This document shows positions 11,579-28,182 of a stretch of 64,000 nt of DNA, one piece after another; positions within the stretch are counted from its first letter, which is position 1; each line of letters starts with the position of its first letter. The notes beneath the pieces were generated by a model. The model made no database searches, was not told the DNA's origin, and worked only from the letters and a program-made list of their open reading frames with translations. The stretch lies in assembly GCF_016629565.1 (NCBI RefSeq), contig NZ_AP023057.1, positions 868,001-932,000 of the forward strand. Direction: 5' to 3'. Both the position numbers and the translations under genes were made by a program. The stretch is from Nitratiruptor sp. YY08-10 (GTDB taxonomy: Bacteria > Campylobacterota > Campylobacteria > Campylobacterales > Nitratiruptoraceae).

Positions 11579-12807
11579 AAGTTTTTTTTAAAACATTCGG
11601 ATGTCGGACAAATCTATTCGATACGCAGGTGATGATGAGCAGGCTCAAAGACTTTACCATCACCCAAAAGGAAGAGGATGCCGATATTGTCGTTGTGAAT
11701 TCCTGCACCGTAACCAACGGAGCAGACAGCAGTGTGCGAAATTATATCAACCGAATGCAAAAAGGGAATAAAAAGATCTATTTGACTGGATGCGGTGCAT
11801 TTACCAAAGGGGAAGAGCTTTTTGAAAAGAAAAAAGTCCTTGGCGTTTTTGGGCATTCCGAAAAAGAGCGAATCAATGAACTGCTCAAAAAAGAGCATTT
11901 TTTTCAGCTTGGCGATCTTGAGTCTGTCGATCAGACTATAGTAAGCGAATTTATCGGCAAAAGCAGAGCTTTTATCAAGATCCAGGAAGGGTGCGATTTC
12001 AGGTGCAGCTACTGTATTATCCCCTATGTCAGGGGCAATGCCCGAAGTCTGGATGAATCACTCATTTTGGAACAGATCCAAAAATTGGCGGCAAACGGCT
12101 TTGGAGAGTTTATCTTTACTGGAACCAATGTGGGAAGCTATGGGAAAGATAACGGCACTTCTTTGGCGAAACTCCTCAAAAAAACAGCTATGATACGTGG
12201 TGTTCGCCGTATTCGTCTAGGTTCTATAGAACCGGTTCAGATCACAGATGAATTGAAAGAGATTCTGGATGAGCCTTGGATGGCAAAGCATCTGCATATC
12301 GCGTTACAGCATACCTCAGATAGGATGCTGAAAATCATGAATCGCCGAAACAGAGTTCATGAGGATTTGAAACTGTTTGAAGAGATCGCTTCACATGGAT
12401 ATGCCATTGGAACAGACTTTATTGTGGGACATCCGGGTGAGAGTGAAGCGATTTTCGAAGAGGCGTATGAAAATTTAAAACTTTTCCCTTTGACCCATAT
12501 ACACCTTTTTACCTATTCTAAAAGAGACGGTACACCTTCAGCCACTATGAAGTCCCAGGTACCAGGTAATGTGGCAAAAGGGCGATACAAAAAGATTCAA
12601 GAGCTTATCAAACAAAAAAATATCGATTTCAGGGAAAAACAAAGAGACTTGCATGTTCTTGTCGAGGGAGAAAAGAGGGGAAGTTTTTTTGGATATGATC
12701 AGTTCTATAACCCTATTTTTATTGAGAGCACATTGGATTTAAAAGGAAATTGGGTTAATATTAGTCAATATGAAGTACGAGAAGAGGGCAATTTTGCAAA
12801 GTTCTAA
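11575..12807 (+). CDS. mtaB: tRNA (t6A37) methylthiotransferase, MtaB-type radical SAM enzyme
   Basis: A 410-residue methylthiotransferase with the UPF0004 domain (conserved Cys in FGCRTN, NSCTVTNGAD and TGCGA), the radical SAM motif CDFRCSYCIIP and a C-terminal TRAM-like region. The FKTFGCRTN start and NSCTVTN are characteristic of MtaB rather than MiaB or RimO. It adds a methylthio group to t6A37 in tRNA. GTG start overlapping mscS (GTGA). The 3' end overlaps the FtsH-like gene. Confidence 0.85.
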   Translation: MKVFFKTFGCRTNLFDTQVMMSRLKDFTITQKEEDADIVVVNSCTVTNGADSSVRNYINRMQKGNKKIYLTGCGAFTKGEELFEKKKVLGVFGHSEKERINELLKKEHFFQLGDLESVDQTIVSEFIGKSRAFIKIQEGCDFRCSYCIIPYVRGNARSLDESLILEQIQKLAANGFGEFIFTGTNVGSYGKDNGTSLAKLLKKTAMIRGVRRIRLGSIEPVQITDELKEILDEPWMAKHLHIALQHTSDRMLKIMNRRNRVHEDLKLFEEIASHGYAIGTDFIVGHPGESEAIFEEAYENLKLFPLTHIHLFTYSKRDGTPSATMKSQVPGNVAKGRYKKIQELIKQKNIDFREKQRDLHVLVEGEKRGSFFGYDQFYNPIFIESTLDLKGNWVNISQYEVREEGNFAKF

Positions 12808-14452
12808 ATCAAAAAAGATCATAATCATCGCATTGTCATCTATACTGTTCATAACGCTTACCGCACTTTTTTTTGTGAAGTATTTTCCGCAAAAAAGTAT
12901 TGATTATACGACCTATCAGACGCTTCTTGAAAACGGCATGATCGATTCAGCGAAGATAGGAAACGAATATGTCTATATAAAAAGTGGCGGTATCGAGTAT
13001 AAAATCCCAAAAGAGTTTATCGATACGAAAGAGTTGTATAAAAAAGTCCCAATCAAGATGCAGGAAAATTATCAAAATCTCTATGATCTTCTAACAATTA
13101 TTATTTTGGCTTTTTTTGTGGGGTATCTTGTATACTATCTCAAGCGCCAAAGAAAAGAGCCTATCCCTATCAAGCATCAGATACAGATCGCTCCGGCTGA
13201 AACGCCTGAGATGAAGATGGATATCAAGCCGCAAGTGAGTGCTTATACCTTTGATGATGTGGCGGGCATCGATGAAGTGAAAGAGGAGCTTGAAGAGATA
13301 ATAGACTTTTTGAAAGATCCGAAAAAATATACAAGCTTCGGGGTTCGCATGCCAAAAGGCGTGCTGCTTGTGGGTCCACCAGGAGTCGGAAAGACATTGA
13401 TCGCAAAAGCGGTAGCGGGTGAAGCCGGGGTACCGTTTTTTTATCAAAGTGGAAGTGCGTTCGTACAGATATATGTAGGTATGGGAGCGAAAAGGGTTCG
13501 CGAGCTTTTCAAAAAAGCAAAAGAGATGGCCCCAAGCATCGTTTTTATCGATGAGATCGATGCAGTGGGAAAAGCCAGAGGCGGTATGAGAAATGATGAG
13601 CGCGAAGCGACGCTCAACCAGCTTCTTACCGAGATGGATGGTTTTGAGGCTTCCAGTGGGGTCATCGTCATAGGGGCGACGAACAAGATCGAGGTTTTGG
13701 ATGAAGCGCTTCTTCGACCTGGACGTTTTGATCGAAGAATCTATGTGGCTTTGCCGAACAAAGAAGATAGAATGAAGATACTCAAAATCTATCTTCGAAA
13801 GATCCCACACAACGTAGATCTGGAGAAACTTGCAGATATGAGCGTGGGATTTAGCGGTGCCGCTCTAGCCAGTCTTGTCAATGAGGCAGCCTTACATGCT
13901 TTGAAGTTGGGAAAAAAAATCGTGGAGTTGAGTGATTTTGAATCAGTCAAAGATAAAGTACTCTATGGCAAGAAAAAACTCCTTGTTTTTGACGAAAAGG
14001 AAAAAGAGATTCAAAGTATTTATCAGGCTGCGAAGGCTCTGTGCGCTTACTGGTATGGGGTCGATTTTGATAAGCTTACGCTCGTTGGCGGATACCTCAA
14101 AGATATTGATAGAGAGATCGTTTCCAAACAGGATTTCATGTCGAAAATAAAAGCGCTTCTTGCTGGATACGTGGCTTTGCAACTCAAATACAATGAAACC
14201 TTCTCCAATGCTGCAGAAGATTTGAAACGGGTAAAAGTGCTTGCTGAAGAGATGGTGGTGCGATACGGTATGGGAGAGAGACTTTTTGCCGATATTAACG
14301 ATGCGATCAAGCTTGTGGAGGAAGCGAAAGCTGAACTCAAAGAGTATCTAAGCAGCCATTTTGCACTGGTGGAAAAGATAGCAACCTATCTTCAAGAGCA
14401 TGAGTCTGTGACGAAAGAGGATGTGAAGAGGATCGTGGATGCAGTTTTTTAG
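12794..14452 (+). CDS. FtsH-like membrane AAA+ ATPase with a degenerate protease site
   Basis: About 552 residues built like FtsH: two N-terminal membrane helices flanking a short periplasmic domain (first helix about residues 8-28, second about 100-116), then a complete AAA+ module. The ATPase has Walker A GPPGVGKT (194-201), a pore motif YVG, Walker B IVFIDEID (249-256) and RPGRFDRR with arginine fingers. In the M41 part the zinc motif HEAGH is replaced by YQAAK (410-414), and the GGRAAE helix is changed to AGYVALQ, so peptidase activity should be lost. TTG 12794 has GAAGAGGG upstream; ATG 12770 is the alternative and would overlap mtaB more. It may act as an unfoldase or as a partner of an active FtsH elsewhere. 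Confidence 0.85.
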
Positions 14453-25795: not shown

Positions 25796-28156
25796 TTAGG
25801 ACTCCATAATTTTTTTCAATTCCGCCCCATCTATCATCTCTTTTTCGATAAGTGTTGAGGCAACTTTTTCTATCTTTTCCCAATGTGTCTCAATGAGCTC
25901 TATCGTGTCGTTGGTGGCTTTTTCTATCCAGTATGCCACCCGCTCTTCTATTATGTCATTGAAAAGCTCTTTGCTGACATTTTGCATCAGGGTATCGATA
26001 TGAATATACCCGAGTGACTCATCCATACCAAAGGTTGCTACAAGATTGTAGGCTTCCCATGTCGCTTGTTCCAGATCTTGCGCAGCTCCTGTATCTTCAC
26101 CTTCTTGCGGGAATTTTTTGAGTTTGCTGAGTCTTCCTGCCAAAGCGACGCAGATATCGTTGTACAGCTCCTCTTTGGAGATATTTGTAATGAACTCATC
26201 TGTATAAGAGACAAATCCCAGTGCTTCTGCTCTTGGTGTGATGGTAACTTGCTCGATTTTGATATCAGGAAGCAAAAGATAGCTGACGACTGCATGTCCC
26301 GCTTCGTGATAGGCTGTTTTGTGCAGATCTTTTTCGAGATTTCTAATGCGTTTCTTATCGATCTTTTGTCCATATTTAATGTTGTTGATCTGCTCTATTA
26401 AAATCTCTTCAGTAATGACTTTGAGATTTTTGCGAATGACATAAAGTGCCGCTTCTTTCCCTACACGCTGCATCTCATATCCGCTCAGCCCACTCATATA
26501 TCGTGCCACTTTATCGATATCGATCTTGCCGTCGTTTGGCTTTTGTAAAATCTTTTTGATAAAAAATTTCCTTGCCTCCATATCGAGATCTGGAACCTCG
26601 ATCAAAAAATCAAACCGTTCGCTTGCCAAGAGATTTTTGTCGATAGCATCGATATTGAGTGCCGTGGCGATTGTAAAAACATACTCTTCATCGCTGATGG
26701 CATCGATCTCTTCACTGATGGCATCATAAGGTATGATCATTCCATCTTTTCCATCCAGTTCATCCAAAAAGACAACAGCCGGAGCAATCTCTTTTGCTTT
26801 TTGATATGCGGCATGAATGAGGTTGGTATCTAGAAGATCTGAGCCGGTGAGCATCACATAAGGCAACTCTGTCTCTTTGATAAAGGCGTATGCCAAAAGG
26901 GTTTTCCCTACACCTTTTGGTCCATGGAGCAACATTCCTTTTGGCATGGGGATATGAAACCGTTCTACCATCGAAGGATGCTTGAGTATACGTACAATCT
27001 CTTTGAGATGTGATTTTACATGTTTTTGTCCGGCGATGTCGTTGAATGAGATTGTTGAATAGTTCATATACGGTTTTTGAGTCGGTTCGATATAGAGCGG
27101 CAGCTTGAAAAGGGTTGCTTTTTGTATGTTTATTGTAACGATGTTTTTTTGAGTTGTAATGGACCAGGAAAGATGGACAGATCTGTTTTGTTTGATGAGG
27201 TTTTCTAAAAATTTCTTGTCAACTTTCTCTAAAAATTGCTTTGCCTCATCCGATACTTCAAAAACGATTTTTTTGATAGGGAGCTGTGCTTTTATGATGG
27301 CTTGATATATAAGATCGATAATGAAATCCGGCAGCTTTTTATGGACTCTTCTGGCATTGATATAGGGGGAGAACGAGAGCACAAGCAGCTCTATAAAATC
27401 ATTTTTAGGCAGTGCAATCTTTTCGATGCCTTCAATCTTACTCTTTTGTATCGTCTCTTTGAAACTTGCTTTGGCGATTTTGACAATCGAGTCAAATTCC
27501 AACGGTTTAAAAAGAATGATATAGTTTTGCACTATTACAGAAAGGAGTTCGGGTACGATAGCGCTTTCGACAATATCATAGATGATTTTCTTCTCTTTTG
27601 CGATAAATTCGATAAATTTAGCCTGGGCTTTGAGCGGATCTTTTTTGTAAAATCGCTGAAAATCCTCTTTTTTGATCAAAGAACTTCCAAGAGTTGAAGT
27701 GAAAATGAATAAAACATTCGAACAATCAACTCCTCTTTCCTCTTTTGAAGCAAAGATATAGTTCATGAGTGCCAGTTGGATGACATTGTCACACTTTTCA
27801 ATATCTTTAAAAACGATAATCGATTGTGGATGGGCATGTACGAAAGTAGGTAAAGTACCATTTTCTCCTATGAGTTTCTTTTGATCAGCTGGATCGGTGA
27901 ATTCAGCCATGTTGACCACTTTTATTCCTTGAAACTCTTCACTTTCTTGCTCCAAAAGCGTAGCTAGGTAGACTTTTCCGCTATTGTGTGGTCCAAAGAA
28001 GGTGAAGAGTCCTTTAAACGGCTGATCGATAGGGGAGTGGTGGATGTGAAAAAGGGCTTTAATCAGTTCATCAATTGCATCATCTTGTCCAAAAAGTTTG
28101 CTTTTGAGCCTTTTTCTCAGTTCTTCATATCTTTGTAACAAATCTTTATGTTTCAT
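25796..28156 (-). CDS. Soluble double AAA+ protein with FtsH-type M41 peptidase
   Basis: 786 residues with no membrane segment. The N-terminal module looks Clp-like (FGQDDAIDELIKAL, then a modified Walker A GPHNSGKV at 55-62 that lacks the Ser/Thr). A second AAA+ module is FtsH-like: Walker A GPKGVGKT (412-419) and Walker B VVFLDE (461-466). The FtsH pore loop is shortened and lacks its FVG aromatic, and the arginine-finger region is reduced to ERFDF. The M41 peptidase is intact, with HEAGH (617-621) and a downstream Asp in TGAAQDLEQAT. ATG 28156 has GAGGA five bases upstream; ATG 28168 is possible. A cytoplasmic FtsH-class protease with a Clp-like front end is unusual. Confidence 0.85.
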   Translation of the reverse strand: MKHKDLLQRYEELRKRLKSKLFGQDDAIDELIKALFHIHHSPIDQPFKGLFTFFGPHNSGKVYLATLLEQESEEFQGIKVVNMAEFTDPADQKKLIGENGTLPTFVHAHPQSIIVFKDIEKCDNVIQLALMNYIFASKEERGVDCSNVLFIFTSTLGSSLIKKEDFQRFYKKDPLKAQAKFIEFIAKEKKIIYDIVESAIVPELLSVIVQNYIILFKPLEFDSIVKIAKASFKETIQKSKIEGIEKIALPKNDFIELLVLSFSPYINARRVHKKLPDFIIDLIYQAIIKAQLPIKKIVFEVSDEAKQFLEKVDKKFLENLIKQNRSVHLSWSITTQKNIVTINIQKATLFKLPLYIEPTQKPYMNYSTISFNDIAGQKHVKSHLKEIVRILKHPSMVERFHIPMPKGMLLHGPKGVGKTLLAYAFIKETELPYVMLTGSDLLDTNLIHAAYQKAKEIAPAVVFLDELDGKDGMIIPYDAISEEIDAISDEEYVFTIATALNIDAIDKNLLASERFDFLIEVPDLDMEARKFFIKKILQKPNDGKIDIDKVARYMSGLSGYEMQRVGKEAALYVIRKNLKVITEEILIEQINNIKYGQKIDKKRIRNLEKDLHKTAYHEAGHAVVSYLLLPDIKIEQVTITPRAEALGFVSYTDEFITNISKEELYNDICVALAGRLSKLKKFPQEGEDTGAAQDLEQATWEAYNLVATFGMDESLGYIHIDTLMQNVSKELFNDIIEERVAYWIEKATNDTIELIETHWEKIEKVASTLIEKEMIDGAELKKIMES

Positions 28157-28182
28157 GGCCTTCCTCATTCTTTCATGCGATA

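What the first reader, a model, noticed from the sequence alone, without database searches (positions are those of the whole stretch)
25796..28156. Soluble protein joining a Clp-like AAA+ module, an FtsH-like AAA+ module and an intact M41 peptidase
FtsH proteases normally have a membrane anchor and one AAA+ domain. Here a 786-residue cytoplasmic protein has a Clp-like N-terminal AAA+ module with an altered Walker A (GPHNSGKV), then an FtsH-type AAA+ with good Walker A and B, but no FVG pore aromatic, a shortened pore loop and a reduced arginine-finger box. The M41 HEAGH and downstream Asp are kept. The peptidase may thus be fed by a different mechanism, or act on small, pre-unfolded substrates. 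The window also has an FtsH-like protein with the opposite loss (ATPase intact, peptidase dead).
Basis: partly seen in the sequence, partly recalled or inferred. Interest (0 to 1): 0.72.

Follow-up and report, generated by a model that had tools for sequence, protein, structure and literature searches.

The report
Soluble M41 protease losing its motor
A bacterial protein fuses a decayed Clp-type ring, an FtsH-type ring without its gripping loop and an intact zinc protease, and it belongs to a conserved, apparently undescribed family in which the ATP-driven motor has decayed repeatedly while the protease was kept, the reverse of the known FtsH 'pseudo-proteases'.

Summary
ORF 25796-28168 (-; 790 aa, or 786 from the second ATG) is a soluble fusion of a ClpB/ClpC-type D2 AAA+ module, an FtsH-type AAA+ module and an M41 peptidase. 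It is a conserved family: 30/298 Campylobacterota, 5/345 Desulfobacterota and 3/399 Pseudomonadota genomes sampled. Across 40 members the P-loop Gly-Lys is kept in both modules (36/36, 40/40) and the peptidase residues are kept (HExxH 39/40, third-ligand Asp 40/40). Hydrolysis residues are not: module 1 arginine finger 7/36, module 2 Walker B Glu 18/40, with at least four changes on the tree. The FtsH FVG pore loop is missing in all 40; in the window's protein the Clp pore loop is gone too. All modules are under purifying selection, including those with dead sites. Early-branching members keep working motifs; three of them sit in TIR/TrkA/DUF4062-STAND operons. Best reading (inference): a hexameric, nucleotide-binding but weakly powered or unpowered cytosolic zinc peptidase for unfolded or short polypeptides, working like LonC. 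Pairing with the window's peptidase-dead FtsH is not supported, because that protein is near universal in the class. No biochemistry exists, and I found no published description in the open-access library.

The parts
25796..28168 (-). Whole ORF, 790 aa (alternative start 28156, 786 aa): Clp-D2-like AAA+ / FtsH-like AAA+ / M41 peptidase
27230..28141 (-). Module 1 (about residues 10-313): HSP100 D2-type AAA+ with C-domain, predicted pseudo-ATPase
   Evidence: family profile vs ClpC E 1.6e-36; AF2 model
27971..27994 (-). Module 1 Walker A GPHNSGKV; Gly-Lys kept, Thr/Ser lost
27857..27868 (-). Module 1 pore-loop site cut to GENG (4 residues between helices; 12 in the early-branching relative L030)
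27794..27820 (-). Module 1 Walker B IIVFKDIEK; catalytic pair Asp-Glu replaced by Lys-Asp
26369..27073 (-). Module 2 (about residues 366-600): FtsH-type AAA+ with lid and linker to the peptidase
26900..26923 (-). Module 2 Walker A GPKGVGKT, intact
26825..26845 (-). Module 2 pore-loop site GSDLLDT; FVG loop deleted, as in all 40 family members
26759..26776 (-). Module 2 Walker B VVFLDE, intact here
26609..26632 (-). Module 2 second region of homology LLASERFD; first Arg lost (A515), second kept (R518)
25799..26356 (-). M41 zinc peptidase domain (about residues 605-790)
   Evidence: E 7.1e-34
26294..26308 (-). HEAGH zinc/catalytic motif, residues 621-625
26075..26077 (-). Asp698, third zinc ligand position (TGAAQDLEQAT)

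Best explanation
A cytosolic, self-compartmentalising zinc peptidase derived from a two-ring ATP-powered protease (Clp-type ring on an FtsH-type ring on M41). Shown from sequence: the FtsH-ring pore loop is absent in all 40 members found, the Clp-ring pore loop and hydrolysis residues are gone in the window's lineage, both P-loops keep Gly-Lys, the peptidase site is intact, and the whole protein is under purifying selection. Inferred: it forms hexamers held by the AAA+ and M41 rings; the AAA+ modules bind nucleotide as a scaffold or gate (module 2 of this protein may still hydrolyse ATP slowly); without pore loops it cannot pull folded substrates and instead digests unfolded or short polypeptides that enter the wide channel by themselves, as LonC does. 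Its role is a dispensable, accessory one in cytosolic protein clean-up.
For: Site counts over 40 members: P-loop Gly-Lys 36/36 and 40/40; module 1 Thr/Ser 9/36, Walker B Glu 10/36, arginine finger 7/36; module 2 Thr/Ser 28/40, Walker B Glu 18/40 (at least 4 changes on the tree), second Arg 36/40; HExxH 39/40; Asp 40/40. Pairwise dN/dS is 0.01-0.08 per module in the four close pairs from the degenerate two-module Campylobacterota lineages, including lineages with GKK and LLEDID motifs, so this is not a decaying gene. Early-branching members L029/L030/L038 and gamma-proteobacterial L066-L068 keep both ATPase sites and an aromatic in the Clp pore loop yet lack FVG, consistent with threading first moving to the Clp ring and later being lost. 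One lineage (about 450 aa) dropped the Clp module altogether and kept HExxH. The gene is cleanly absent in a sister species, with no remnant between the same neighbours. Precedent: MtaLonC is hexameric, binds nucleotide, has no ATPase activity and degrades unfolded substrates (PMC3391209).
Against: No biochemistry exists. Module 2 of this very protein keeps GKT, DE and one arginine finger, so it may still hydrolyse ATP and power something. Oligomeric state was not tested (AF2 monomer only, pTM 0.51). No substrate is known. Two Desulfobacterales copies sit beside a LonB/LonC-like protease gene, which fits proteostasis, but elsewhere the context is not conserved.
Confidence: 0.5

Rival explanations
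1. It remains an ATP-driven machine: module 2 hydrolyses ATP and uses it to gate or remodel, with substrate gripped by something other than FVG-type loops. Only some relatives became unpowered.
For: In the window protein and its sister L012, L001, L013-L015, the Desulfobacterales members L002, L003, L005, L006 and L045, module 2 keeps GKT, DE and the second Arg; module 2 dN/dS is 0.03.
Against: Pore loops are absent in both rings here; the close relative L004 has lost the module 2 catalytic Glu (VDGLD) while keeping the peptidase, so ATP hydrolysis cannot be indispensable in this clade.
Confidence: 0.27
2. It is an immune or regulatory protease: an executioner of a TIR/STAND-type conflict system, domesticated in the window's lineage and still acting in defence.
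For: L029/L030/L038 are encoded with TIR, TrkA_N (weak RyR) and DUF4062-NACHT/STAND genes, with genes touching or overlapping; DUF4062 is a TIR-like NADase with antiphage activity (PMC13174449). Gamma-proteobacterial members share YbjN-like and membrane-protein neighbours. Patchy distribution.
Against: In the window's family the gene sits alone between nicotinate phosphoribosyltransferase or other housekeeping genes and an RND adaptor gene, in stable synteny across 7 genomes; no defence gene is next to it. The window protein has no specific PADLOC match.
Confidence: 0.12
3. It joins mixed hexamers with the canonical FtsH or with the peptidase-dead FtsH-like protein, supplying peptidase sites to their motors.
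For: Same AAA+/M41 topology; both other proteins are encoded in the genome; mixed FtsH hexamers are known in organelles and cyanobacteria (PMC9020784).
Against: The dead FtsH-like protein is in 60/61 genomes, the soluble M41 protein in about 10%. This protein has an extra ring where FtsH has a membrane anchor, and no anchor of its own.
Confidence: 0.08
4. It is a decaying pseudo-enzyme with no peptidase function.
For: Many ATPase residues are lost; one distant member (L035) has lost the first His, and one copy (L033) has a frameshift.
Against: HExxH 39/40 and Asp 40/40; low dN/dS in every module.
Confidence: 0.03

Closest known systems
FtsH (TIGR01241; MEROPS M41)
   Same: AAA+ then M41 order, HExxH plus Asp, about 30% identity over residues 370-784; Foldseek best hits are FtsH structures
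   Different: No membrane anchor, no FVG pore loop, one arginine finger lost, an extra Clp-type module in front; TIGR01241 scores 243 bits against a cut-off of 600
ClpB/ClpC/ClpA D2 module (HSP100)
   Same: Module 1 matches the D2 and C-domain over its whole length
   Different: No hydrolysis residues, no GYVG loop, no D1 ring, and covalently joined to FtsH-M41 instead of docking on ClpP
MtaLonC, ATP-independent Lon-like protease (PMC3391209)
   Same: Active peptidase kept, AAA+ module degenerate; nucleotide binding without hydrolysis is plausible here (P-loop Lys invariant)
   Different: Serine-lysine Lon peptidase against zinc M41; unrelated peptidase fold; two AAA+ modules here
FtsHi pseudo-proteases of plastids (PMC8197885, PMC9020784)
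   Same: FtsH-family proteins that lost one of their two functions
   Different: They lost the zinc site and kept the ATPase; this family shows the reverse
FtsH-containing MoxR-vWA ternary conflict systems (PMC7159879)
   Same: A two-AAA+ FtsH-related protein with an inactive first AAA+ domain, in conflict operons
   Different: Both AAA+ domains are FtsH-type there and no M41 is mentioned; here the first module is Clp-type and no MoxR/vWA genes were recognised among the neighbours of the early-branching members that were scanned

Membership tests
FtsH (TIGR01241) | Whole-protein score above the curated cut-off | tested here: not met
   243.1 bits against 600
FtsH (TIGR01241) | N-terminal transmembrane anchor | tested here: not met
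   No hydrophobic segment in the N-terminus; maximum 19-residue mean 1.77 at residue 195, inside module 1
FtsH (TIGR01241) | FVG aromatic pore loop | tested here: not met
   Loop deleted in all 40 members
FtsH (TIGR01241) | Two SRH arginines (RPGR) | tested here: not met
   A515 / R518 here; first Arg 10/40, second 36/40 in the family
FtsH (TIGR01241) | AAA+ followed by M41 with HExxH and third-ligand Asp | tested here: met
   Pfam; H621, E622, H625, D698
HSP100 / Clp ATPase | D2-type AAA+ with C-domain | tested here: met
   Profile 10-319 aligns to ClpC 499-808, E 1.6e-36
HSP100 / Clp ATPase | Walker A T/S, Walker B DE, arginine finger | tested here: not met
   V66, K121-D122, V211
LonC-like ATP-independent protease (works like) | Degenerate AAA+ motifs with intact peptidase site | tested here: inconclusive
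   Met for the family at large; in the window protein module 1 is degenerate but module 2 still has its Walker residues
LonC-like ATP-independent protease (works like) | No ATPase activity; degrades unfolded but not folded proteins | not testable with these tools
   Needs purified protein
LonC-like ATP-independent protease (works like) | Lon-type serine-lysine peptidase | tested here: not met
   M41 zinc peptidase instead
FtsH-type MoxR-vWA ternary conflict system | MoxR and vWA partner genes | tested here: not met
   No MoxR or vWA family among the Pfam-scanned neighbours in L058/L059/L062; neighbours elsewhere were compared by clustering and by eye only

The most novel reading that the evidence does not exclude
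An M41 protease lineage in which substrate threading moved from the FtsH ring to a fused Clp ring, serving as the proteolytic arm of TIR/TrkA/STAND immune operons, and which was then domesticated in Campylobacterota and Desulfobacterota, where both motors repeatedly lost hydrolysis and the protein became an ATP-independent, nucleotide-gated zinc peptidase.
Probability: 0.3. Interest if true: 0.78.

Novelty: new variant of a known kind. Interest (0 to 1): 0.62.

Why it matters
FtsH is the textbook case of a protease that cannot work without its ATP motor. A family in which evolution kept the M41 site and removed the motor several times, leaving P-loops intact, gives natural variants for asking what nucleotide binding alone does in an AAA+ protease, and whether a compartmentalised M41 peptidase can work unpowered. 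The early-branching members suggest that such fusions took part in bacterial immune-type systems before becoming stand-alone genes.

Tried and rejected
Pairing with the peptidase-dead FtsH-like gene at 12770-14452: rejected by co-occurrence. Spread on plasmids and phages: no family members found, only canonical FtsH. Viral contigs: matches were to one AAA+ module or to an FtsH-like C-terminal half; no full-length match was returned. Conserved operon as a clue to substrate in the window's lineage: synteny is conserved in the genus and family but the partners are unrelated housekeeping and transport genes. Curated defence models: only generic AAA+ matches such as IetA. PHROGs: generic AAA+/FtsH-like matches only. 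Promoter/terminator scan: nothing above chance. The literature searches found no description of the architecture.

Full report
WHAT IS THERE. The reading frame 25796-28168 (-) encodes 790 aa (786 from the ATG at 28156, which has GAGGAAGG just upstream). Pfam finds AAA_2 (71-186), AAA (412-526) and Peptidase_M41 (613-787), all above the curated cut-offs. A profile of the N-terminal modules matches ClpC and ClpB D2 with the C-domain (E 1.6e-36, profile 10-319 on ClpC 499-808). The C-terminal half aligns with FtsH structures over residues 369-784 at about 30% identity. An AlphaFold2 model has mean pLDDT 84. There is no membrane segment by a simple hydropathy scan. In both models module 2 shows only a one-residue break where FtsH has its FVG loop.

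IT IS A FAMILY. A scan of named genomes gave full-length relatives at 46-67% identity in Nitratiruptor-type Campylobacterota and in Desulfobacterales. Sampling whole genomes found it in 30 of 298 Campylobacterota (12 of 58 genera), in 5 of 345 genomes of the Desulfobacterales phylum and in 3 of 399 genomes of the phylum of a Pelagibacteraceae genome, taken here as Pseudomonadota. A second search with the M41 part alone, in 150 genomes, found 14, all already seen. These are lower bounds for the latter two phyla, because only two candidates per genome were scored. In a sister species of the same genus the gene is cleanly missing: the two flanking genes stand 90 bp apart with no remnant. So it is dispensable.

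THE MOTOR DECAYS, THE PEPTIDASE DOES NOT. Over 40 members the P-loop Gly-Lys is kept in every module 1 (36/36) and module 2 (40/40). The residues needed to hydrolyse ATP are not: module 1 Walker A T/S 9/36, Walker B Glu 10/36, arginine finger 7/36; module 2 Walker A T/S 28/40, Walker B Asp 23/40, Walker B Glu 18/40, first SRH Arg 10/40. The second SRH Arg, which would reach the neighbouring subunit's site, is kept in 36/40. The peptidase is kept: first His 39/40, Glu, second His and third-ligand Asp 40/40. On the maximum-likelihood tree the module 2 Walker B Glu changed at least four times, the module 2 Walker A Thr at least twice, the module 1 arginine finger once and the peptidase His once. 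One lineage of about 450 aa has shed the Clp module and keeps HExxH. Even a close relative of the window protein, L004, has lost the module 2 catalytic Glu (VDGLD). Pairwise dN/dS in close pairs is 0.01-0.08 for each module in the degenerate two-module Campylobacterota lineages, including those with GKK/LLEDID motifs. The dead modules are therefore conserved, not drifting.

ORDER OF EVENTS. Rooted on two canonical FtsHs, the earliest branches are L029/L030, L035, L038 and the gamma-proteobacterial L066-L068. Of these, all but L035 keep both ATPase sites, and all keep the module 1 arginine finger and an aromatic residue in the Clp pore loop, yet none has the FtsH FVG loop. The simplest history is that threading passed to the Clp ring when the fusion arose and was then lost in the 33-member clade that contains the window protein. 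The order of the earliest branches is not firmly resolved (supports 82-84, long branches for L035 and L038), and losses are inferred by parsimony.

CONTEXT. In the window's family the gene is monocistronic in appearance and in stable synteny between housekeeping genes and an RND adaptor gene. In L002/L006 it follows, by 55 bp, a LonB/LonC-like protease gene, with an S30AE/cold-shock protein further upstream. Three early-branching members are different: in L059 (and L058) the gene is encoded with TIR, TrkA_N and DUF4062-NACHT/STAND genes and starts on the last base of the TrkA_N gene; in L062 it overlaps the end of a DUF4062-STAND gene by a few bases, with TrkA_N nearby (weak RyR signal). DUF4062 has been reported as a TIR-like NADase with antiphage activity (PMC13174449). 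Gamma-proteobacterial members share two other neighbours, one weakly YbjN-like and one a predicted membrane protein.

HOW IT PROBABLY WORKS. Inference: the AAA+ and M41 parts assemble into stacked hexameric rings, as in FtsH; the P-loops bind nucleotide and stabilise or gate the assembly; without pore loops the rings cannot pull, so only unfolded or short chains diffuse in and are cut. The nearest working model is LonC, a hexamer that binds nucleotide, lacks ATPase activity and degrades unfolded but not folded substrates (PMC3391209). The main uncertainty is that module 2 of the window protein still has all Walker residues, so a slow ATP-driven gating step is the strongest rival.

WHAT IT IS NOT. 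It is not an FtsH by the curated definition (243 bits against 600, no anchor, no FVG), although it is descended from the same AAA-M41 stock. It is not linked to the peptidase-dead FtsH-like protein at 12770-14452, which has a specific match in 60 of 61 sampled genomes of the class. No description of this architecture was found in the held open-access library; subscription papers were not searchable. From memory, not tested: the contig length of G035 (1,877,931) is that of Nitratiruptor sp. SB155-2, and that of G263 (2,562,277), which holds the truncated form, is that of Sulfurovum sp. NBC37-1; the window is probably from a Nitratiruptor.

Noticed in passing
window 12770-14452: Membrane-anchored FtsH-like protein with intact ATPase and no HExxH; a specific match is present in 60 of 61 sampled Campylobacterota genomes, so it is a conserved class-wide pseudo-protease of unknown role.
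   Followed up: partly
L058 63-14499; L059 350-15785; L062 7937-16896: Campylobacterota operons combining TIR, TrkA_N with a weak RyR signal, DUF4062-NACHT/STAND and an intact Clp-FtsH-M41 protease; looks like an undescribed immune-type system.
   Followed up: partly
L142 11957-13845; L143 5724-8281; L144 11747-14211: Gamma-proteobacterial relatives of the M41 fusion share two neighbours: a weakly YbjN-like protein and a predicted membrane protein with little or no Pfam match.
   Followed up: partly
L002 1220-6188; L006 3471-8439: The M41 fusion gene follows a LonB/LonC-like protease gene by 55 bp, with an S30AE/cold-shock fusion upstream: two unusual cytosolic proteases side by side.
   Followed up: no
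L035 1492-4113 / L063 9589-12584: An early-branching member with the first catalytic His changed to Tyr (YEAGH), downstream of a NikA-like mobilization protein gene.
   Followed up: no
L033 1456-3447: One Campylobacterota copy is split by a frameshift in the M41 domain; sequencing error or a real pseudogene.
   Followed up: no
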